Positions 6,587 to 21,847 of a stretch of 64,000 bases of DNA are shown here, one piece after another. Under the pieces are notes generated by a model. It had not been told where the DNA came from and made no database searches. It was given only the letters and a program-made list of their open reading frames with translations. The translations under genes and the position numbers were made by a program. Numbering within the stretch: the stretch's first letter is position 1; every line of letters starts with the position of its first letter. The DNA is from a virus: positions 1-64,000 of the IMG/VR virus record IMGVR_UViG_3300043403_000051. One strand, written 5' to 3'.

Positions 6587-6850
6587 TTATTTATCCTCAG
6601 CAAGTAGTTCTTTAAACACTTTGTCAGATAACTCTCTTGCAATTTTTTGTTGCACAAGATTTCGAATAATCGAATCAGAAACATACTTACTTTTATCTAT
6701 AAGTGTTTTAATTCTTTCGTTAATAATTTGTTCAATATCTATTTTTTGTACAACTTCCTGAAAAGCCTTCTCTATCTTTTGTTTTAACAAGTCATTGATA
6801 GTACTTTTAACTTCGTTATCAAAGTCATTGATAGTTACGTGAATATGCAT
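6587..6850 (-). CDS. Hypothetical helical protein, 87 aa
   Basis: Almost entirely helix-forming, with heptad-like spacing of Ile, Leu and Val (DLLKQKIEKAFQEVVQKIDIEQII), so it may form a coiled coil or helical bundle. It directly follows the DUF2828 gene on the minus strand (9 bp gap) and may be co-expressed with it. No family is recognised. Confidence 0.65.
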   Translation of the reverse strand: MHIHVTINDFDNEVKSTINDLLKQKIEKAFQEVVQKIDIEQIINERIKTLIDKSKYVSDSIIRNLVQQKIARELSDKVFKELLAEDK

Positions 6851-6859
6851 AAAATTATT

Positions 6860-8536
6860 TTAGAGTGAAATATATTGCATTAATTCTTGATTAAGAGCTA
6901 TATCAACCACATCCTCAGCAGTTTGGGGTTTTTTATCATTTGATTTGGAACCTGTTAAAAATGTAATTACTGATGGGTCATAACCACCATAATAAAATAC
7001 ATTCTTTTCAGTAGATTTTGATTCAAACGTTGTCTTACGATTACCATAAAACGTGTTACGTATATCCCAAAAAACAAAAGAAAAATTATTAACAAAATGT
7101 TTACTAAACCCAACCTGATGTAGTTTATATTTAAAGGCATTAATGTTGGTGGTATCGTACATTTTTGTAGAGTCAAACTCCCCATCAGATATACAAATTA
7201 TACCTTTAGGAAAATCCTCTTCACGGAATCCTTTTTGCTTAATTATACACAGTAAATCAGCAACAGCAAGAAAGTTTGTATTAGCTGATGCAATCCGTGT
7301 TTCCGTGCGCCAAAGTTCAGTCACATTTTTGCCAGTTAATGTACGCAATATTGCAGTGCTTGCAAAGTCAATGTATGTTCCTGCAAACTGTCCTTTTAAC
7401 ATTTGTGCAAAAAAGATTGATAAAGTTTTTGCTATGTGGTAAGAGGAAACATTTGTGCCATATGCCATAGAATTCATGGATTCACTCGTGTCCTTCACTA
7501 CAATATATTCACCTGCTAATCCACCTGCCAATTGCAGCAAACCATCCCATTGTTTGTTAATGGTATCTGTTTGATACTTTTCAGCACTATGAGTAATTTT
7601 TGCAGTCAATTCATGAGGATAACCAGTGAATTTCGCTATTGGTTGCCCTGCAATCCACGTTTGGTATTTGCCCTGCAATCCCTGATTACTTAGGTATTTG
7701 GACTGTACCAATAATGATAAAGCTCGACCATGTATTTTACCAAAATCAATAGACTTGTGTTTACCCTGACTTATTAATTGTTGCCATTGGTGGGCAGTGC
7801 CTGATGTTTTTAATTTGCGGTATTGTTTGTATGTGTTGTAATTTTGTTTGAGTACACCCGAACCTTCCTTACCTCCAAACAATTTACTACATAACCATTT
7901 AGCAATTATATTATCAGCTTGTGCCTCAACAGTTTTACAGGCAGAATTGGCTTTGATTTGTGGTAGGTATTTTTTGATAAGATTAACCTGAAGGTCATCA
8001 CTTAATCCTTCAGCAATAAATGTAAAGAAAATATCCCATTGTAATTTTTTATCAGGCCACCCATGATATTGTAGGTCATACGATAACATTTGAATTAAAT
8101 CATTCCATGACCCTGCTGCAATAAACAAATAAATATTTTTCCAAAACAGTTCGGAGTGATTAATTTGTAACCACATCATTCTCATCAATGATTCATGCTT
8201 CAAACCTGCACCACGTTGAACTTCATTTGTTTGCTCACCATTAGACATTTTACACTTTCGTGTAATCAACCTGCAATAAAGTGTAAATGCAATTGCACTC
8301 CTTGCATCTTCTGCAAATAACACAATCATATCACGCTCAACCTCTGCATAATCACGAGGCTTTTTATATGAACCAATCTTTGCAAATTGGTCAACCAACA
8401 CAGAGCCCGTAGTATTAAACTTACGGGCACCATTACCAGACACATCTTCTGCTGCTATATTTTTAGCAGCATTAACAAAAACAGATGTCTTTTTTTCTTT
8501 TTCCATAAAGAGAGTTTTTTTCTTACTGTTAAACAT
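6860..8536 (-). CDS. DUF2828 protein (Ro60/TROVE-like, vWA domain)
   Basis: 558 residues. The N-terminal two thirds are helical and match the DUF2828 pattern (GNGARKFNTTGSVLVDQF, then AEDARSAIAFTLYCRLI). The C-terminal third is a von Willebrand A domain: EYIVVKDTSESM carries the DxSxS metal-site motif, with a later Thr at the expected MIDAS position and PKGIICISDGEFD carrying the last aspartate. This architecture is that of Ro60-type ring proteins, which bind misfolded RNAs and Y RNAs. Start at 8536; a second Met at 8506 is possible. RNA binding is an inference from family resemblance. Several tRNA-like RNAs occur in this window and are possible partners. Confidence 0.8.
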   Translation of the reverse strand: MFNSKKKTLFMEKEKKTSVFVNAAKNIAAEDVSGNGARKFNTTGSVLVDQFAKIGSYKKPRDYAEVERDMIVLFAEDARSAIAFTLYCRLITRKCKMSNGEQTNEVQRGAGLKHESLMRMMWLQINHSELFWKNIYLFIAAGSWNDLIQMLSYDLQYHGWPDKKLQWDIFFTFIAEGLSDDLQVNLIKKYLPQIKANSACKTVEAQADNIIAKWLCSKLFGGKEGSGVLKQNYNTYKQYRKLKTSGTAHQWQQLISQGKHKSIDFGKIHGRALSLLVQSKYLSNQGLQGKYQTWIAGQPIAKFTGYPHELTAKITHSAEKYQTDTINKQWDGLLQLAGGLAGEYIVVKDTSESMNSMAYGTNVSSYHIAKTLSIFFAQMLKGQFAGTYIDFASTAILRTLTGKNVTELWRTETRIASANTNFLAVADLLCIIKQKGFREEDFPKGIICISDGEFDSTKMYDTTNINAFKYKLHQVGFSKHFVNNFSFVFWDIRNTFYGNRKTTFESKSTEKNVFYYGGYDPSVITFLTGSKSNDKKPQTAEDVVDIALNQELMQYISL

Positions 8537-11752: not shown

Positions 11753-11884
11753 GTGCCTTAGGCAGGACTCGAACCCGCACTCTAAAAGAACTGAATGTTT
11801 AGTTCAGCGTGTATTCCGAGTTTAATCAAGCGCTAGGTTTGGAAGCTAACAGACCCCTTGATTAAACATTTCACCACTAAGGCA
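11753..11884 (-). tRNA. tRNA-like RNA (class II type) with 48-nt hairpin in the D loop
   Basis: Perfect acceptor stem TGCCTTA/TAAGGCA, anticodon arm CTGAA-CTAAACA-TTCAG, variable region of about 12 nt and T arm GCGGG-TTCGAGT-CCTGC. The D arm carries an insertion, 11820-11867, that is a perfect 11 bp inverted repeat (GTTTAATCAAG/CTTGATTAAAC) with a structured loop; removing it restores a Leu-type D arm. By standard numbering the anticodon would be AAA, which is unusual. The discriminator is C and the 3' flank is TT, unlike the working tRNAs. It could be a tRNA with an inserted element or a specialised tRNA-like RNA. Confidence 0.65.
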
Positions 11885-16831: not shown

Positions 16832-17053
16832 ATGAAGGATGTTATAGAGAATACTTTTTTAGATTTACCTCTTATGAGGAGAGCTATTGTTTATGGTATT
16901 GCTTTGTATGATGAAAAATATGAGTTATTGAAGGTTATTGACCCCCTTATAAAAGAAGATAGGGATGAATTTTTAAAAGCGGCAGAACTCATTAAAGATA
17001 TATGTACACTGTCAGGTGGTGAAATTGGTATACGCGCTGCCTCGTCTCGGTAG
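16832..17053 (+). CDS. Hypothetical protein, 73 aa, 3' end overlapping a tRNA-like RNA
   Basis: A helical protein (MKDVIENTFLDLPLMRRAIV, then KYELLKVIDPLIKEDRDEFLKAAELI). The last 15 codons lie inside the tRNA-like gene at 17010, and the TAG stop falls in its anticodon-stem region. Translation and folding of the RNA would compete. No family is recognised. Confidence 0.55.
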   Translation: MKDVIENTFLDLPLMRRAIVYGIALYDEKYELLKVIDPLIKEDRDEFLKAAELIKDICTLSGGEIGIRAASSR

Positions 17054-17134
17054 TGCAATTCTTGATAAGGACAGTCATTTAAACATATTGGACGCTTATA
17101 GAGTTGCTTGTAGGTTCGAATCCTACCCTGACAG
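17010..17134 (+). tRNA. tRNA-like RNA (Leu-type) with greatly enlarged variable arm
   Basis: Perfect acceptor TGTCAGG/CCTGACA, Leu-type D arm (GTG-AAATTGGTATA-CGC), anticodon stem CTGCC/GGTAG and perfect T arm GTAGG-TTCGAAT-CCTAC. The anticodon loop TCGTCTC lacks the invariant U33, so no amino acid is assigned. The variable arm is about 55 nt and forms a long stem (GCAATTCT with AGAGTTGC, then ATAAG/CTTAT). The 3' flank is G-CT. The well-kept acceptor and T arms suggest selection for tRNA-like shape rather than decoding. Confidence 0.65.
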
Positions 17135-17150
17135 CTTAAAATTATTAATT

Positions 17151-17732: not shown

Positions 17733-17806
17733 CCCCTTATAGCTCAATTGGTTAGAGTACCAGACTTTTAATCTGGGTGTTCAGAGTTCGAGTCTCTGTG
17801 GGGGGA
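17733..17806 (+). tRNA. tRNA-Lys (TTT)
   Basis: Acceptor CCCCTTA/TGGGGGG, anticodon arm CCAGA-CTTTTAA-TCTGG, T arm CAGAG-TTCGAGT-CTCTG, discriminator A, flank CA. First tRNA of cluster 1. Confidence 0.95.
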
Positions 17807-17819
17807 CATAAAATAATAA

Positions 17820-17891
17820 GGGCGTGTGGCCGAGTGATTCAGGTAGTGGTCTGCAACACCATTGACACAGGTTTGAATCCTGTCATGCCCT
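17820..17891 (+). tRNA. tRNA-Cys (GCA)
   Basis: Acceptor GGGCGTG/CATGCCC, anticodon arm GTGGT-CTGCAAC-ACCAT, T arm ACAGG-TTTGAAT-CCTGT, discriminator T, flank CT. Confidence 0.93.
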
Positions 17892-17901
17892 CTTAATATA
17901 T

Positions 17902-17976
17902 GCATCGGTAGCTCAGTTGGTTTAGAGCAGGGTCTTTACACGGCTCTGGTCGGGGGTTCGAATCCCTCTCGATGTA
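17902..17976 (+). tRNA. tRNA-Val (TAC)
   Basis: Acceptor GCATCGG/TCGATGT, anticodon loop TTTACAC, T arm GGGGG-TTCGAAT-CCCTC, discriminator A, flank CA. Confidence 0.93.
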
Positions 17977-17982
17977 CATTCT

Positions 17983-18053
17983 CCACCTGTCGTTCAATGG
18001 AAGGACAACATGCTTCTAACTTGTTTACAGAGGTTCGACTCCTCTCAGGTGGT
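17983..18053 (+). tRNA. tRNA-Arg (TCT)
   Basis: Perfect acceptor CCACCTG/CAGGTGG, anticodon loop CTTCTAA (stem with one mismatch), T arm GAGG-TTCGACT-CCTC, discriminator T, flank CT. It reads AGA/AGG; leader 1 uses AGA for both arginines. Confidence 0.92.
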
Positions 18054-18072
18054 CTAACAAAATTTTAACAAT

Positions 18073-18405
18073 ATGATTAAGTTTTTATCAGCTATATTTC
18101 TTATCTTTGTAGTTGCTACAATGTCAAAGACAGGAACAGCAAGTTTTTATCACTCTAAGTTCGAAGGTAGGAAAACAGCAAACGGTGAAGTATTTAGAAA
18201 TAATGGGTATACGGCAGCATCAAATCAGTTCAAGCTTGGTGATAGTGTAAGAGTTACTAACCTTGAAAATATGAGGAAAGTAAATGTGAAGATTAATGAT
18301 AGAATGGCTGATGGTATAAGATTGATTGATTTAACACAAAAAGTAGCAAGAGATTTAGGTTACTATAAAAAAGGTATAACAAAAGTAAAAGTAGAAAAAA
18401 TATAA
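18073..18405 (+). CDS. RlpA-like double-psi beta-barrel protein, secreted
   Basis: N-terminal signal sequence (residues about 1-17, MIKFLSAIFLIFVVATM), then GTASFYHSKFEGRKTANGE, YTAASNQFKLGDSVRVTN and VKINDRM, the hallmarks of the RlpA/expansin-like DPBB domain. The family binds or cleaves naked peptidoglycan glycan strands; the conserved acidic residue in the NDRM region is present. The 110 aa length is a single domain without the SPOR module. It sits between tRNA genes in the cluster 1 operon. A role in lysis or in altering the host envelope is inference. Confidence 0.85.
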   Translation: MIKFLSAIFLIFVVATMSKTGTASFYHSKFEGRKTANGEVFRNNGYTAASNQFKLGDSVRVTNLENMRKVNVKINDRMADGIRLIDLTQKVARDLGYYKKGITKVKVEKI

Positions 18406-18411
18406 ATAAAT

Positions 18412-18483
18412 TCCCCTTTAGCTCAACGGAAGAGCAACACCCTGTTAAGGTGAAGGTTGAGATATCGTAATTCTCAGGGGGAG
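18412..18483 (+). tRNA. tRNA-Asn (GTT)
   Basis: Acceptor TCCCCTT/AGGGGGA, anticodon loop CTGTTAA. The T arm GAGAT-ATCGTAA-TTCTC has an atypical loop start and a mismatched closing pair. Discriminator G, flank CA. Confidence 0.85.
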
Positions 18484-18490
18484 CATATAT

Positions 18491-18563
18491 TGTGGGGTGC
18501 AAGTAATGGTAACTGGTCGGTCTCATAAGCCGTACGATAATGGTTCGACTCCATTCTCCGCAA
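18491..18563 (+). tRNA. tRNA-Met (CAT)
   Basis: Acceptor TGTGGGG/CTCCGCA, anticodon loop CTCATAA, T arm AATGG-TTCGACT-CCATT, discriminator A, flank CA. Initiator, elongator or lysidine-modified Ile identity cannot be settled by eye. Confidence 0.9.
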
Positions 18564-18570
18564 CAGAAAC

Positions 18571-18597
18571 GCTTTATATCTCGGCTCGTATATAAAG
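18571..18597 (+). other. Hairpin in tRNA spacer
   Basis: Between tRNA-Met and tRNA-Gly a perfect 8 bp hairpin (CTTTATAT/ATATAAAG) lies in an otherwise uncommitted spacer of about 64 nt. It may be a processing or stability element. Confidence 0.4.
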
Positions 18598-18627
18598 GGA
18601 AGATTCTTGAAATAAACGGGCCCTCAC

Positions 18628-18701
18628 GCAGTATACGCATAATTGGTGGTGCATCTTCCTTCCACGTAGAAATAGAGTCGGTTCGATTCCGACATACTGC
18701 T
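18628..18701 (+). tRNA. tRNA-Gly (TCC)
   Basis: Acceptor GCAGTAT/ATACTGC, anticodon loop CTTCCAC, T arm GTCGG-TTCGATT-CCGAC, discriminator T, flank CA. Confidence 0.9.
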
Positions 18702-18745
18702 CAGGGGGTTTTATCAGTTTCCCGTGACAAAAAAACTGGTGTTAT

Positions 18746-18821
18746 ATCCCTGTTGACAAAATTGGAGTAAGTCCCTTCCCTTTCAAGGAAGTTATTGCGA
18801 GTTCGAGCCTCGTCGGGGATA
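18746..18821 (+). tRNA. tRNA-Glu (TTC)
   Basis: Acceptor ATCCCTG/CGGGGAT, anticodon arm CTTCC-CTTTCAA-GGAAG, T arm GCGAG-TTCGAGC-CTCGT, discriminator A, flank CA. Confidence 0.93.
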
Positions 18822-18826
18822 CAGTA

Positions 18827-18917
18827 AAAGTAGTTGGCGTAATTGGGAATGAATACCAACAATAGTTAACGCCCTATATCAGTATAGGAGATGCGGGTGG
18901 AAGTCCTGTACTACTTT
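18827..18917 (+). ncRNA. tRNA-like RNA without an anticodon loop
   Basis: Perfect 7 bp acceptor-like stem AAAGTAG/CTACTTT. A D-like arm GGCGT/ACGCC holds an extra inner hairpin (TTGG/CCAA). The position of the anticodon arm is a 6 bp hairpin with a four-base loop (CCTATA-TCAG-TATAGG), too small for an anticodon. The T-like arm GCGGG/CCTGT has loop TGGAAGT. It lies in line with genuine tRNAs in cluster 1, so it would be co-transcribed. A tRNA-shaped non-decoding RNA is the best description. Confidence 0.6.
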
Positions 18918-18924
18918 AACATAC

Positions 18925-18998
18925 GGAATTGCAGCATATTTGGCGTATGCAACTCACTGTCTATGAGTTGATTGCGGGTTCGAGTCCCGTCTTTTCCG
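18925..18998 (+). tRNA. tRNA-Asp (GTC)
   Basis: Anticodon arm ACTCA-CTGTCTA-TGAGT, T arm GCGGG-TTCGAGT-CCCGT, 5 bp D stem. The acceptor GGAATTG/CTTTTCC contains two T-T mismatches. Discriminator G, flank CA. Confidence 0.88.
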
Positions 18999-19068
18999 CA
19001 GTAGTTTGGGAAACGAAGGCATGTAAAACTGAAAAGTGTCTACTCAAACAGCCCTTAACGGGGCATCT

Positions 19069-19141
19069 GCTTTCTTAGCTCAACGGTGAGAGCAGGACGC
19101 TTATATCGTCAAGGTTACAGGTTCGAATCCTGTAGGAAGTA
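19069..19141 (+). tRNA. tRNA-Ile (TAT)
   Basis: Acceptor GCTTTCT/AGGAAGT, anticodon loop CTTATAT, T arm ACAGG-TTCGAAT-CCTGT, discriminator A, flank CA. It reads the AUA codon directly; leader 1 contains one ATA. Confidence 0.9.
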
Positions 19142-19146
19142 CATAT

Positions 19147-19220
19147 TGAGATGTAGCTCAATTGGTGAGAGCATATGACTGATACTCATAAGGTTGAAGG
19201 TTCGACCCCTTTCATCTCAA
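19147..19220 (+). tRNA. tRNA-Ile (GAT)
   Basis: Perfect acceptor TGAGATG/CATCTCA, anticodon arm TATGA-CTGATAC-TCATA, T loop TTCGACC, discriminator A, flank CA. Confidence 0.93.
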
Positions 19221-19225
19221 CACAC

Positions 19226-19299
19226 GGGGCAATAGTTTAAGCGGCTTAAAACAATTGATTTGCAATCAGTAGTTCCGATTTCGAGTATCGGTGGCTCCA
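19226..19299 (+). tRNA. tRNA-Ala (TGC)
   Basis: Acceptor GGGGCAA/TGGCTCC (one mismatch), anticodon arm ATTGA-TTTGCAA-TCAGT, T arm CCGAT-TTCGAGT-ATCGG, discriminator A, flank CA. Last tRNA of cluster 1. Confidence 0.92.
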
Positions 19300-19313
19300 C
19301 ACAAAGAACAACA

Positions 19314-19793
19314 ATGGACAAATATTTTAAAACTGAGACTGGTAAAATAGTTGATATAATAGAATACACGGCCCAACAAATAAAAGACAATCCCTCTGTT
19401 AAGATATACATAGGTGCTGATAGCCAAGTCTACGGCCCTAAGATTAAGTTTATCTTAGCTATTGTATATAGGGTTGGTAATAGGGGTGGGCACTGTATTC
19501 ATAAGCTTATAAAGACTGAAAGACCACCCAAAGGGATTCCTGATGAAATTCAGGTTAATAACAGGCTTACAGAGGAAGTTTACTTAACTATGGAGCTTGC
19601 CCAATATTTTATTGATAATAGTTCTTTTAAACTGGAGGCAGTTGAATTTGACTTTAATCAAGAGGAAAGTTACCTAAGTAACAAGCTAATAAACTTATCA
19701 ACAGGTTGGGCTAAAGGACTTGGTTTTAAAGCACGTACTAAGCCTGATGAACTGATAGCTTGCAAGTATGCAGACCATCTCGTAAGATTTTAA
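19314..19793 (+). CDS. RNase H-like protein (DUF458/YkuK-like)
   Basis: The start MDKYFKTETGKIVDIIEY at 19314 is chosen; longer versions run into tRNA-Ala. KIYIGADSQVYGPKIKFILAIVYR is the first strand pair with the catalytic-type Asp of the RNase H fold, LEAVEFDFNQ supplies a second acidic strand and KPDELIACKYADHLV a final Asp near the C-terminus. This matches the predicted RNase H-like DUF458 family; the substrate is unknown. Being in the tRNA operon, a role in RNA handling is possible but unproven. Confidence 0.75.
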   Translation: MDKYFKTETGKIVDIIEYTAQQIKDNPSVKIYIGADSQVYGPKIKFILAIVYRVGNRGGHCIHKLIKTERPPKGIPDEIQVNNRLTEEVYLTMELAQYFIDNSSFKLEAVEFDFNQEESYLSNKLINLSTGWAKGLGFKARTKPDELIACKYADHLVRF

Positions 19794-19795
19794 TT

Positions 19796-20392
19796 ATGAT
19801 TGTAATATATAAAATAGAAAATCCAAAAGGTAAAGTTTATATTGGTCAAACCAAAAGACTTATTCAAAGAAAGTCTGCTTACAAAAATTTAAGATGTAAG
19901 AAACAAAGAAAACTTTATAGTTCTTTAAATAAATATGGTTGGGAAAATCATACACTTTGTGTTTTACATGAGTTACCTGATGATATAGAGCAAAGAGTAG
20001 TAGATGATTATGAAATTTTTTACTATGAACAATTTATTGCTTGTGGATTTGAAATGCTAAACCTAAAAACATGCGGAAACGGCGGAGGATTACACTCGGA
20101 GGAAACAAAGAGATTGATAGGAAAACAAAGTAAGGAAAGATTTAAAGCTAAATCTGGAATGAAAATAGCTCAGGTAAATCTTAATTTGGAAATTATTAAT
20201 TTTTGGGAGAACGGTTATACACTACAACAAGAAAGAAAGTATTACAATATATCAAGAAAATGCAGAGAATTTCCAAGTATAGCTTATGGATATTTTTGGT
20301 TATACGAAAAAGATTTACATAAATTAACGCAAATAGACAAGCTTAAAATAAAAAAAGACGGGAATGGTGTTTATAGTTATTTCAAAATGTAA
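19796..20392 (+). CDS. GIY-YIG homing endonuclease with NUMOD modules
   Basis: The start MIVIYKIENPKGKVYIGQTK at 19796 follows the previous stop by 2 bp. IYKIENPKGKVYIGQ is the GIY-YIG core (Tyr-Ile-Gly-Gln form). LHSEETKRLIGKQSKERFK is a NUMOD3-type segment, and VNLNLEIINFWENGYTLQQE, followed by CREFPSIAYGYFW, resembles a NUMOD1-type DNA-binding module. 198 aa is a normal length. It is probably a freestanding homing endonuclease that has settled in the tRNA array; its target cannot be seen here. Confidence 0.88.
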   Translation: MIVIYKIENPKGKVYIGQTKRLIQRKSAYKNLRCKKQRKLYSSLNKYGWENHTLCVLHELPDDIEQRVVDDYEIFYYEQFIACGFEMLNLKTCGNGGGLHSEETKRLIGKQSKERFKAKSGMKIAQVNLNLEIINFWENGYTLQQERKYYNISRKCREFPSIAYGYFWLYEKDLHKLTQIDKLKIKKDGNGVYSYFKM

Positions 20393-20431
20393 TAATCTCT
20401 GTAGAGTTTAGTAATTCATTAACATTATTTA

Positions 20432-20463
20432 TTTGGTAGATTAAAAAAAGATTTATACCTTTG
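20432..20463 (+). promoter_or_regulatory. Promoter of tRNA cluster 2
   Basis: TTTGGTAG (from 20432), 20 nt spacer, TACCTTTG (20456-20463). The leader ATG is 6 nt after the -7 box, so the transcript is probably leaderless. Confidence 0.9.
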
Positions 20464-20469
20464 TATCCC

Positions 20470-20547
20470 ATGAAGAATTTCAACACATATTATAGTCTCT
20501 CATTGTTATCCAGCCTAACGGGTCGGGAGCTAAAGGTATGGGTATAA
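20470..20547 (+). CDS. Leader peptide 2 (25 aa) of tRNA cluster 2
   Basis: Residues 7-16 are YYSLSLLSSL, codons TAT TAT AGT CTC TCA TTG TTA TCC AGC CTA (20488-20517). That is exactly two codons for each of the five tRNAs in the downstream cluster: Tyr (GTA), Ser-AGY (GCT), Ser-UCN (TGA), Leu-CUN (TAG) and Leu-UUR (TAA). No other amino acid interrupts the run. This agrees with tRNA identity down to isoacceptor level and is strong evidence for a regulatory leader peptide rather than a chance frame. Confidence 0.88.
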   Translation: MKNFNTYYSLSLLSSLTGRELKVWV

Positions 20548-20588
20548 TAAAGATAAACTCTTAAATCAAAACATATAAAAAAGCTCCC
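20525..20588 (+). promoter_or_regulatory. Antiterminator pairing of attenuator 2
   Basis: GGGAGCT at 20525-20531, 7 nt after the last control codon, is perfectly complementary to AGCTCCC at 20582-20588, the 5' arm of terminator 2. Confidence 0.7.
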
Positions 20589-20604
20589 TATTGGGGGCTT
20601 TTTT
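20583..20604 (+). terminator. Terminator 2, before tRNA-Leu
   Basis: GCTCCC-TATT-GGGGGC flanked by A and T runs, with six T after the stem. It lies 7 nt before the first tRNA of cluster 2. Confidence 0.88.
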
Positions 20605-20611
20605 AGTTTAT

Positions 20612-20684
20612 GGCTCTATGACGTAATTGGAAACCGTCTTGGCTTTAGAACCCAAGTTTCCGAGTTCGAGTCTCGGTAGAGCTA
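20612..20684 (+). tRNA. tRNA-Leu (TAG)
   Basis: Acceptor GGCTCTA/TAGAGCT, D stem GACG/CGTC, anticodon loop TTTAGAA, T arm CCGAG-TTCGAGT-CTCGG, discriminator A, flank CA. The variable region is short for a Leu tRNA. Confidence 0.88.
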
Positions 20685-20687
20685 CAT

Positions 20688-20760
20688 GCCTTTGTGATGA
20701 AACGGAATACATGTCAGACTTAAAATCTGAATTTTACGGGTTCGACTCCCGTCAGAGGTA
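20688..20760 (+). tRNA. tRNA-Leu (TAA)
   Basis: Acceptor GCCTTTG/CAGAGGT, anticodon arm TCAGA-CTTAAAA-TCTGA, T arm ACGGG-TTCGACT-CCCGT, discriminator A, flank CA. The variable region is about 5 nt, again short. Confidence 0.92.
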
Positions 20761-20765
20761 CATTT

Positions 20766-20850
20766 GGAAGCACGTAAAGTTGGCGTACTTATCCGTCTTG
20801 AAAACGGTGAAGAGGTAACACTTGTGCAGGTTCGACCCCTGCTGTTTCCG
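20766..20850 (+). tRNA. tRNA-Ser (TGA)
   Basis: Acceptor GGAAGCA/TGTTTCC, anticodon loop CTTGAAA, long variable arm, T arm GCAGG-TTCGACC-CCTGC, discriminator G, flank CA. Confidence 0.93.
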
Positions 20851-20853
20851 CAT

Positions 20854-20937
20854 AGAGAGGTGACTGAATGGTAAGGTACTGGTTTGCTAAACCAGGGTCA
20901 GATAAAACTGGAGTGGGTTCGATACCCATCCTCTCTG
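20854..20937 (+). tRNA. tRNA-Ser (GCT)
   Basis: Perfect acceptor AGAGAGG/CCTCTCT, anticodon arm CTGGT-TTGCTAA-ACCAG, long variable arm, T arm GTGGG-TTCGATA-CCCAT, discriminator G, flank CT. Confidence 0.93.
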
Positions 20938-20943
20938 CTAAAG

Positions 20944-20990
20944 GGTTCCTGTATCAGGCAAAATATAACCCCCGTTGTGGTATAGGAATC
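20944..20990 (+). ncRNA. 12-bp hairpin between tRNA-Ser and tRNA-Tyr
   Basis: GGTTCCTGTATC (20944-20955) pairs with GGTATAGGAATC (20979-20990) at all 12 positions allowing G-U, around a 23 nt loop with a C run. It is not a tRNA. It could be a stable small RNA or a processing signal within the cluster 2 transcript. Confidence 0.5.
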
Positions 20991-20998
20991 GTTTATTT

Positions 20999-21083
20999 GA
21001 GATAGCTGTCGTGATGGAGGAACGGCACTGGTCTGTAAAACCAGCACTATGAAACACAGTAGGTTCGAATCCCACCTATCTCA
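20999..21083 (+). tRNA. tRNA-Tyr (GTA)
   Basis: Perfect acceptor GAGATAG/CTATCTC, anticodon arm CTGGT-CTGTAAA-ACCAG, long variable arm, T loop TTCGAAT, discriminator A, flank CA. Confidence 0.93.
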
Positions 21084-21109
21084 CATTAACAATTAATTTT
21101 AATTATTTA

Positions 21110-21141
21110 TTTGGTAGTTAGATAAAAAGATACTACCTTTG
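21110..21141 (+). promoter_or_regulatory. Promoter of tRNA cluster 3
   Basis: TTTGGTAGT (from 21110), 20 nt spacer, TACCTTTG (21134-21141). The leader ATG begins 4 nt after the -7 box, so transcription probably starts at or next to the A of ATG. Confidence 0.9.
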
Positions 21142-21145
21142 CTTT

Positions 21146-21226
21146 ATGAATGTAACACGTACACATACGCAACAGTTTTGGTTCCCTACAAGGGCTGGGC
21201 TTGGTATGTGTGATAATAGAGGATAA
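21146..21226 (+). CDS. Leader peptide 3 (26 aa) of tRNA cluster 3
   Basis: Residues 4-16 are TRTHTQQFWFPTR (codons 21155-21193). The run contains only Thr, Arg, His, Gln, Phe, Trp and Pro, which are exactly the seven amino acids of the downstream tRNAs (Pro, Thr, Phe, Gln, His, Arg, Trp), and every one is represented. Codons include CGT, which fits tRNA-Arg ACG, both Gln and both Phe codons, and TGG for Trp. The match is the same principle as in leaders 1 and 2. Confidence 0.88.
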   Translation: MNVTRTHTQQFWFPTRAGLGMCDNRG

Positions 21227-21260
21227 ATTCCCCCAAACACTCACTCATTGAAAAGCCCAG
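21195..21260 (+). promoter_or_regulatory. Antiterminator pairing of attenuator 3
   Basis: CTGGGCTT at 21195-21202, just after the control codons, is perfectly complementary to AAGCCCAG at 21253-21260, which includes the 5' arm of terminator 3. Confidence 0.72.
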
Positions 21261-21282
21261 GACATAAAATCCTGGGTTTTTT
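21256..21282 (+). terminator. Terminator 3, before tRNA-Pro
   Basis: Perfect 7 bp stem CCCAGGA/TCCTGGG around CATAAAA, then TTTTTT. It ends 9 nt before tRNA-Pro. Confidence 0.92.
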
Positions 21283-21291
21283 ATTTTTAAT

Positions 21292-21365
21292 CGGGATGTG
21301 GACTAATGGCAAGTCACTTACTTTGGGAGTAAGGCATCATGGAGGTTCGAGTCCTCTCATCCCGA
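21292..21365 (+). tRNA. tRNA-Pro (TGG)
   Basis: Perfect acceptor CGGGATG/CATCCCG, anticodon arm CTTAC-TTTGGGA-GTAAG, T loop TTCGAGT, discriminator A, flank CA. Confidence 0.93.
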
Positions 21366-21370
21366 CATTT

Positions 21371-21442
21371 GCCTCGTAAGCATATATGGTGATGCAGCGC
21401 ACTTGTAATGCGCAGAATAGGTTTCGAGTACCTAACTTGGCT
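21371..21442 (+). tRNA. tRNA-Thr (TGT)
   Basis: Anticodon arm GCGCA-CTTGTAA-TGCGC, T arm TAGGT-TTCGAGT-ACCTA. Acceptor GCCTCGT/ACTTGGC has two mismatches. Discriminator T, flank CA. Confidence 0.87.
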
Positions 21443-21449
21443 CAGTAAT

Positions 21450-21521
21450 GGAGATATAGCTCAGTTGGAAGAGCAACGGATTGAAGCCCCGTGAGCACCA
21501 GTTCGACTCTGGTTATCTCCA
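21450..21521 (+). tRNA. tRNA-Phe (GAA)
   Basis: Perfect acceptor GGAGATA/TATCTCC, anticodon loop TTGAAGC (one mismatch in the stem), T arm ACCAG-TTCGACT-CTGGT, discriminator A, flank CA. Confidence 0.92.
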
Positions 21522-21528
21522 CATATAT

Positions 21529-21599
21529 TCCCATTTGGCGTAACGGAAGCGTAGGACTCTTTGAAAGTCTTGGAAATTGTTCGATTCAATTAATGGGAG
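21529..21599 (+). tRNA. tRNA-Gln (TTG)
   Basis: Perfect acceptor TCCCATT/AATGGGA, anticodon loop CTTTGAA, T arm AATTG-TTCGATT-CAATT, discriminator G, flank CA. Confidence 0.92.
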
Positions 21600-21604
21600 C
21601 ACAC

Positions 21605-21676
21605 GGGTTTATTGATGTAATGGAAGCATGGCAGTTTGTGAAGCTGCTCGTATGGGTTCGAACCCCATATCTACCC
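21605..21676 (+). tRNA. tRNA-His (GTG)
   Basis: Anticodon arm GCAGT-TTGTGAA-GCTGC, T arm ATGGG-TTCGAAC-CCCAT. The extra 5' G pairs with discriminator C (G-1:C73), the identity hallmark of tRNA-His. Two mismatches in the acceptor. Confidence 0.9.
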
Positions 21677-21681
21677 CTTTT

Positions 21682-21753
21682 ATCCTCTTAGCATAATGGA
21701 AGTGCAGCAAGCTACGAACTTGCGTTGTGTGAGTTCGAGTCTCATGGAGGATT
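21682..21753 (+). tRNA. tRNA-Arg (ACG)
   Basis: Acceptor ATCCTCT/GGAGGAT, anticodon arm GCAAG-CTACGAA-CTTGC, T arm GTGAG-TTCGAGT-CTCAT, discriminator T, flank CT. It serves CGN codons, matching CGT in leader 3. Confidence 0.93.
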
Positions 21754-21765
21754 CTTTTTATAACT

Positions 21766-21835
21766 GCGTATGCCTAAAGGAGTAGTAAGCGGTCTCCAAA
21801 ACCGTGATTTATCAGTTCGAGTCTGGTCATGCGTG
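21766..21835 (+). tRNA. tRNA-Trp (CCA)
   Basis: Acceptor GCGTATG/CATGCGT, anticodon arm GCGGT-CTCCAAA-ACCGT, T arm ATCAG-TTCGAGT-CTGGT, discriminator G, flank CT. Last of the array. Confidence 0.93.
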
Positions 21836-21847
21836 CTTAAATAGTAT

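What the first reader, a model, noticed from the sequence alone, without database searches (positions are those of the whole stretch)
18827..18917. tRNA-shaped RNA with no anticodon loop inside the tRNA array
It has a perfect acceptor-type stem, D-like arm with extra hairpin, T-like arm, but only a tetraloop hairpin where the anticodon should be. It is in register with real tRNAs and would be co-transcribed. It could be a decoy for a tRNA-cutting nuclease, a modification-enzyme sponge or a Y-RNA-like partner of the Ro60-type protein at 6860.
Basis: partly seen in the sequence, partly recalled or inferred. Interest (0 to 1): 0.75.

Follow-up and report, generated by a model that had tools for sequence, protein, structure and literature searches.

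The report
Conserved anticodon-less tRNA-like phage RNA
Two unrelated groups of viruses that infect bacteria carry the same small RNA, folded like a transfer RNA but without the loop that reads the genetic code, so it must do something other than translation.

Summary
Window 18826-18920 is one member of a conserved structured RNA family absent from Rfam 15. A scan of viral contigs found 17 homologues in a group of small head-tailed phages that share no detectable protein with this crAss-like phage. A covariance model built from 15 of them, window excluded, scores the window element at 79.5 bits (E about 2e-17); the model's next-best hits are ordinary tRNAs. Across 18 sequences 99.8% of pair cells hold, and 9 pairs change on both sides (0 of 500 shuffles). 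Canonical tRNA-core bases (U8, A14, A15, G18, G19, A21, G46, U48, G53, U54, A58, C61) are 18/18. The RNA differs from a tRNA in three ways: a 5-6 bp hairpin closed by 3-4 nt replaces the anticodon arm, the D-loop carries a nearly invariant ~20-nt insertion, and 16/18 have G55. In the small phages it starts just after the stop codon of the MuF head gene, with no tRNA genes nearby. Ro60 does not co-occur with it, so the Y-RNA idea is not supported. Best reading: a processed, non-decoding tRNA mimic displaying its D-loop to an unknown partner. Function is inferred, not shown.

The parts
18826..18920 (+). whole tRNA-like RNA element (match to covariance model R1, positions 1-94)
   Evidence: R1, built from 15 homologues without the window, scores it 79.5 bits, E=1.8e-17
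18827..18834 (+). acceptor-like stem, 5' strand AAAGTAGT (8 bp)
   Evidence: pairs 18910-18917; 4 of 8 pairs change on both sides across 16 distinct sequences, 100% paired
18835..18835 (+). U8 equivalent, invariant
   Evidence: 18/18
18837..18840 (+). D-stem 5' strand GCGT
   Evidence: pairs 18869-18872; 100% paired, only one-sided variation (G-C/G-U)
18841..18868 (+). expanded D-loop: canonical AATTGG (A14 A15 U16 U17 G18 G19) followed by a nearly invariant insertion GAATGAATACCAACAATAG.., ending in A21
   Evidence: columns 10-34 average 99% identical over 136 sequence pairs while 4-fold sites of the flanking gene are 67%; canonical bases 18/18. The TTGG/CCAA hairpin (18843-18846 with 18856-18859) never varies, so it has no covariation support
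18869..18872 (+). D-stem 3' strand ACGC
18873..18888 (+). short hairpin CCTATA-TCAG-TATAGG in place of the anticodon arm; no anticodon loop
   Evidence: 4 of 6 pairs change on both sides; homologues have a 3-nt loop (ATA or AAT)
18889..18892 (+). variable region AGAT (with 18888: 5 nt, positions 44-48; G46 and U48 invariant)
   Evidence: 18/18
18893..18909 (+). T-like arm GCGGG-TGGAAGT-CCTGT, 5 bp, 7-nt loop, G55
   Evidence: stem 100% paired with a two-sided change against the homologues; loop U54, A58, C61 invariant, U55 only 2/18
18910..18917 (+). acceptor-like stem, 3' strand ACTACTTT; CCA not encoded
18746..18822 (+). upstream neighbour tRNA-Glu (ttc)
   Evidence: ARAGORN, Rfam
18925..18999 (+). 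downstream neighbour tRNA-Asp (gtc)
   Evidence: ARAGORN, Rfam

Best explanation
A conserved, non-decoding tRNA mimic. Shown by comparison: the RNA keeps the tRNA acceptor/T domain, the D-stem and the bases that build the tRNA core, has its anticodon arm cut down to a short closed hairpin, and carries a nearly invariant ~20-nt insertion in the D-loop; selection is strongest on the D-loop. Inferred: it is co-transcribed with neighbours (tRNAs here, the portal-MuF operon in the small phages), cut out by the host's tRNA 5'- and 3'-end enzymes (RNase P, RNase Z), and persists as a stable ~92-nt RNA. It then acts in trans by offering a tRNA-like surface plus the D-loop insertion to a protein that recognises the tRNA core, so that it competes with real tRNAs or recruits or blocks that protein during infection. 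The protein is not identified.
For: 17 homologues in a second phage lineage; independent covariance score for the window and true tRNAs as next-best hits; covariation 9 pairs, 0/500 shuffles, slid controls fail; RNAalifold on the gap-free 15-sequence alignment gives the same structure; cloverleaf is the MFE of 10 of 17 homologues; canonical tRNA-core bases 18/18; RNA 92% identical and D-loop block 99% where 4-fold sites are 67%; G-U pairs fix the sense strand; no protein shared and no tRNA genes in contigs of the second lineage; no complementary site of 11 nt or more other than itself in its own genomes, against a simple antisense role.
Against: No expression, processing or binding data exist. 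All 17 homologues belong to one group of small phages, so the second lineage rests on the window alone, and the nearest relative of the window phage, Lbo-JY46, lacks the RNA. The search used exact core patterns and favours that core. The window copy has G56 and a less stable cloverleaf than its MFE. Conservation is equally compatible with a cis-acting processing signal that needs no partner.
Confidence: 0.5

Rival explanations
1. A processing punctuation signal: the tRNA fold is only a substrate for RNase P/RNase Z, which cut the transcript and make the 3' end of the TerL-portal-MuF mRNA; the excised RNA has no function of its own.
For: In the homologues the RNA starts 1-2 nt after the MuF stop codon in most contigs and the next gene has its own Bacteroidetes-type promoter after it; all features needed by end-processing enzymes are kept.
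Against: Processing needs only the acceptor/T domain, yet the most conserved part is the D-loop insertion. In the window it sits between tRNAs that already provide cuts.
Confidence: 0.22
2. An uncleavable competitor of an anticodon nuclease or other tRNA-targeting defence enzyme (a special case of the mimic).
For: It has the tRNA core but no cleavable anticodon loop; the same idea was proposed for the tRNA-like domain of Salmonella YrlA (PMC7790460). tRNA-cutting toxins that act on phage tRNAs are known (PMC13273310).
Against: No defence target known for these hosts; enzymes that read the anticodon loop would have little to bind; in the small phages it lies in the head-gene module and there are no tRNAs to protect.
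Confidence: 0.12
3. An RNA that serves head assembly or DNA packaging, like the phi29 packaging RNA.
For: In 17 homologues it lies between portal/MuF and prohead protease/capsid genes; in the window it is about 4.6 kb upstream of TerL.
Against: Gene neighbourhood only; the two phages have unrelated head proteins; no evidence of loop-loop pairing was sought or found.
Confidence: 0.05
4. A Y-RNA-like partner of the Ro60-like protein.
For: The window encodes a phrog_850/DUF7788 protein at 6860-8536; YrlA RNAs contain a tRNA-like domain (PMC7790460).
Against: No co-occurrence in either direction; no YrlA match; a hairpin array next to the Ro60-like gene is a better candidate.
Confidence: 0.04
5. 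A decayed tRNA or a chance fold.
For: Its T-arm resembles that of tRNA-Asp next to it (13 of 17 bases); MFE is not the cloverleaf.
Against: E=1.8e-17 with an independent model, covariation and purifying selection.
Confidence: 0.01

Closest known systems
Canonical bacterial tRNA (RF00005)
   Same: acceptor/T domain, D-stem, U8, A14, R15-Y48, G18, G19, A21, G46, U54, C56 (mostly), A58
   Different: no 7-nt anticodon loop, ~20-nt D-loop insertion, G55 in 16/18, no Rfam or ARAGORN call
YrlA / bacterial Y RNA tRNA-like domain (RF02553)
   Same: tRNA mimic without decoding function
   Different: no Rfam match, does not co-occur with Ro60-like genes, no separate Ro60-binding stem
T4 RNAC and RNAD
   Same: small phage RNAs of unknown function in a phage with its own tRNAs, late expressed (PMC9697503); from general knowledge they lie in the tRNA cluster
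   Different: not compared by sequence or structure here
mascRNA (RF01684)
   Same: tRNA-like RNA released by tRNA end-processing and not used in translation (general knowledge)
   Different: eukaryotic; only a 15-nt chance-level T-arm match in a homologue
skipping-rope RNA (RF02924)
   Same: phage-associated structured RNA; weak end-to-end match to the window element
   Different: 12.4 bits against a gathering score of 36.7 and no match in a homologue

Membership tests
tRNA (RF00005) | score above the Rfam gathering cut-off | tested here: not met
   no match for the element at E<=10; a homologue matches only over its T-arm, 14.0 bits against 29
tRNA (RF00005) | 7-nt anticodon loop with U33 | tested here: not met
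   6-bp hairpin with 3-4 nt loop in 18/18
tRNA (RF00005) | conserved tertiary-core bases | tested here: met
   U8, A14, A15, G18, G19, A21, G46, U48, G53, U54, A58, C61 in 18/18; U55 not
tRNA (RF00005) | aminoacylation and decoding | not testable with these tools
   decoding is excluded by the missing anticodon loop; charging is untested
YrlA Y RNA (RF02553) | covariance match | tested here: not met
   no match at the element; the one weak YrlA hit, 13.2 bits, lies at 18951-19041, over the neighbouring tRNA-Asp and the spacer after it
YrlA Y RNA (RF02553) | linkage or co-occurrence with a Ro60 gene | tested here: not met
skipping-rope RNA (RF02924) | gathering score 36.7 | tested here: not met
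   12.4 bits for the window, none for homologues
tmRNA | tRNA-like domain with a tag-peptide reading frame | tested here: not met
   ARAGORN reports no tmRNA; 92 nt leaves no room for a tag domain
Anticodon-nuclease decoy | binds and inhibits a tRNA-cutting enzyme | not testable with these tools
   needs biochemistry

The most novel reading that the evidence does not exclude
A phage-specific class of anticodon-less tRNA mimics, shared by unrelated phages of Bacteroidetes-type hosts, that uses the tRNA core to get processed and stabilised and uses an invariant D-loop insertion to capture a host protein, for instance to disarm a tRNA-targeting defence or to retune a tRNA enzyme.
Probability: 0.4. 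Interest if true: 0.88.

Novelty: new variant of a known kind. Interest (0 to 1): 0.74.

Why it matters
Phage tRNA arrays are read as a translation supplement. This family shows that evolution can keep the tRNA body while removing the part that reads codons, in phages that share no detectable proteins. That points to a trait useful in infection that depends on looking like a tRNA. It gives a defined, testable RNA (92 nt, known ends, one invariant loop) with which to ask what tRNA-shaped RNAs do besides decoding, a question open since the T4 RNAs C and D.

Tried and rejected
Relatives by protein: capsid-region, RNaseH-like and TerL queries in viral contigs returned nothing; only Lbo-JY46 is close. 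Stem-only pattern AAAGTAGT..ACTACTTT is unspecific. The hairpin pattern TTGGNAATGAATACCAA hit only the known set plus chance hits, many of them coding repeats of IGNEYQ-type peptides. The genome-contig hit L214 is a coding chance match. A sample of 395 genomes drawn from the phylum of L214 (Carboxylicivirga) gave one 77-nt match at 40 bits, the length of a tRNA and not examined further, and nothing near family scores, under strict filters. No homologue in INPHARED by BLAST: the only hits at E<=1 are four short partial ones, and none in ten related phage records by model, where matches are of tRNA length and score. Derivation from tRNA-Asp (best global alignment, z 4.3) was considered; the wholly different but perfectly paired acceptor stem and the homologues make a decayed copy untenable.

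Full report
What was checked. The window is a fragment of an 83-kb virus record of a crAss-like phage: its terminase is 75% identical to that of Leptolyngbya phage Lbo-JY46 and 23-35% to crAss-like phages such as csAssE-Sib and Cellulophaga phi4:1. It has a tRNA array at 17733-21836 covering all 20 amino acids. The reported element lies between tRNA-Glu and tRNA-Asp. ARAGORN and Rfam do not call it. Its minimum-energy fold is not the cloverleaf. A mechanical search for an acceptor stem, an abutting 5-bp/7-nt T-arm, a D-stem and a middle hairpin returns four places in 64 kb, the element and three true tRNAs, against 0.25 per strand in first-order random sequence. So it was worth pursuing, but from the sequence alone it was not proven.

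The family. The close relative Lbo-JY46 has a syntenic array but no such element there; in that phage tRNA-Glu is interrupted by a homing endonuclease gene and followed by a replacement tRNA. A pattern taken from the D-arm, GGCGTAATTGGNAATGNNTACC, hit 15 IMG/VR contigs, all of which carry a full-length homologue; a looser pattern added two more. None of the 15 reaches any Rfam gathering score. They are alignable over 94 columns without gaps.

Tests of homology and structure. A covariance model was built from the 15 homologues without the window. It finds the window element at 79.5 bits, E=1.8e-17; the next matches in 203 kb are at 29 bits and below and nearly all coincide with annotated or predicted tRNA genes, which is itself a measure of how tRNA-like the family is. 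On 18 sequences (16 distinct) 99.8% of pair cells are standard pairs; 9 of 27 pairs have changes on both sides, against a mean of 2.2 in shuffles and 1-3 in slid controls, 0 of 500 shuffles. This alignment was fitted to the model and leans towards it, but the gap-free MAFFT alignment of 15 gives the same structure by RNAalifold and 4 two-sided pairs, and the cloverleaf is the MFE of 10 of 17 homologues. Support is in the acceptor stem (4 two-sided pairs), the middle hairpin (4) and the T-stem (1). The D-stem varies on one side only and the TTGG/CCAA hairpin not at all, so that hairpin is unproven. G-U pairs in several stems would be A-C on the other strand, which fixes the sense strand.

It is a tRNA core. 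Counting seven acceptor pairs (columns 3-9 with the 3' strand; the extra pair is position -1 with 73), the alignment gives U8, A14, A15, U16, U17, G18, G19, A21, G46, U48, G53, U54, A58 and C61 in 18/18, C56 in 16/18 and R57 in all. A15-U48 is an accepted form of the Levitt pair, and the first pair of the middle hairpin corresponds to the 26-44 contact (general knowledge of tRNA structure). The departures are equally clear: the middle hairpin has 5-6 pairs and a 3-4 nt loop, so there is no anticodon loop; the D-loop carries a ~20-nt insertion after G19; position 55 is G in 16/18, so pseudouridine 55 cannot form in those. The window copy also has G56.

Selection. In the 17 homologues the RNA is 92% identical and the D-arm block (columns 10-34) 99% identical on average, while 4-fold degenerate sites in the following protease gene are 67% identical. 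The D-loop block is also nearly identical between the two lineages, whereas acceptor, middle and T stems differ with compensation. The D-loop insertion is therefore the best candidate for the functional site.

Context. In the homologues the RNA starts 1-2 nt after the stop codon of a MuF-like head gene in most contigs and is followed by a Bacteroidetes-type promoter and the prohead protease and capsid genes (the promoter is read by eye). No tRNA genes are present in the 15 loci or in three longer contigs, and no window protein of 60 aa or more matches those three. So the tRNA array is not essential to the element, and the two lineages share it by transfer or old descent.

Function. Decoding is excluded by the missing loop. 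Antisense action on its own phage is unlikely: no complement of 11 nt or more outside the element itself. A U55-enzyme sponge is unlikely (G55). A Ro60 partner is unlikely: Lbo-JY46 and csAssE-Sib have the Ro60-like protein without the RNA, and three small-phage contigs have the RNA without the protein (the contigs may be incomplete). Next to the Ro60-like gene the window phage and Lbo-JY46 instead carry a tandem hairpin array with the motif AG-N7-ACAGCAAA...N7'-CT-GATAAG, six of eight units with perfect 9-bp stems of differing sequence (stems of at least 8 bp start at 4% of random positions there). That array is the natural candidate for Ro60-associated RNA. What remains is a processed tRNA mimic with a partner for its D-loop (best), a pure processing signal (second), and special cases: competitor of an anticodon nuclease, as proposed for YrlA (PMC7790460), or a head/packaging RNA.

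Known relatives. The nearest parallels are YrlA-type tRNA mimics, mascRNA-like RNAs, and T4 RNAC/RNAD, phage RNAs still described as of unknown function and late expressed (PMC9697503). None of those tested is the same family; T4 RNAC/RNAD were not compared by sequence. Chen et al. 2014 on Y RNAs as tRNA mimics could not be read (not held).

Limits. One window copy and one group of homologues; covariance E-values are rough; patterns favour the conserved core; no expression data. The identity claim (conserved, tRNA-like, non-decoding RNA) I hold at about 0.95; the mechanism at about 0.4-0.5.

Noticed in passing
window 6300-6600 (-), and L132:6915-7280 (Lbo-JY46): Tandem array of hairpin RNAs directly downstream of the Ro60-like gene: AG-N7-ACAGCAAA ... 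N7'-CT-GATAAG, stems differ between units but stay complementary (six of eight units have 9 perfect pairs); one unit in each phage contains a tRNA T-arm GGGTTCGACTCC. Candidate Y-RNA array; no Rfam match at gathering. The ACAGCAAA motif is absent within about 1 kb of the csAssE-Sib Ro60-like gene.
   Followed up: partly
window 11754-11883 (-): tRNA-like gene (Rfam tRNA 38.5 bits) with a 54-nt D-loop insertion forming an 11-bp hairpin GTTTAATCAAG/CTTGATTAAAC that itself holds an anticodon-arm-like CCA loop; its own anticodon loop CTAAACA has C37 and looks non-decoding.
   Followed up: partly
window 17010-17135 (+): Leu-type (class II) tRNA-like gene with canonical T- and D-arms, an anticodon loop TCGTCTC lacking U33, and a ~55-nt variable arm (GCAATTC/GAGTTGC stem). 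ARAGORN only fits it with an intron.
   Followed up: partly
L002:3488-4479 (Lbo-JY46): tRNA-Glu is split in its D-arm region by a homing endonuclease gene whose end carries a complete replacement tRNA-Glu (4371-4443, Rfam 37.6 bits).
   Followed up: no
window 20764-20852 (+): A tRNA-Ser (tga) missed by ARAGORN and by the Rfam gathering cut-off lies between tRNA-Leu (taa) and tRNA-Ser (gct).
   Followed up: no
window 20939-20998, 18565-18627, 19000-19068 (+): Other array spacers hold hairpins, for example a 10-bp GGTTCCTGTA/TATAGGAATC stem, of unknown meaning.
   Followed up: no
L220:1627-1757 (-), L227:9677-9807, L232:4467-4597: 131-nt tRNA-like genes sharing GTTGGCGTAATTGG in the D-arm, with canonical T-loop and encoded CCA, in other viral contigs; possibly a tRNA with an insertion.
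   Followed up: no
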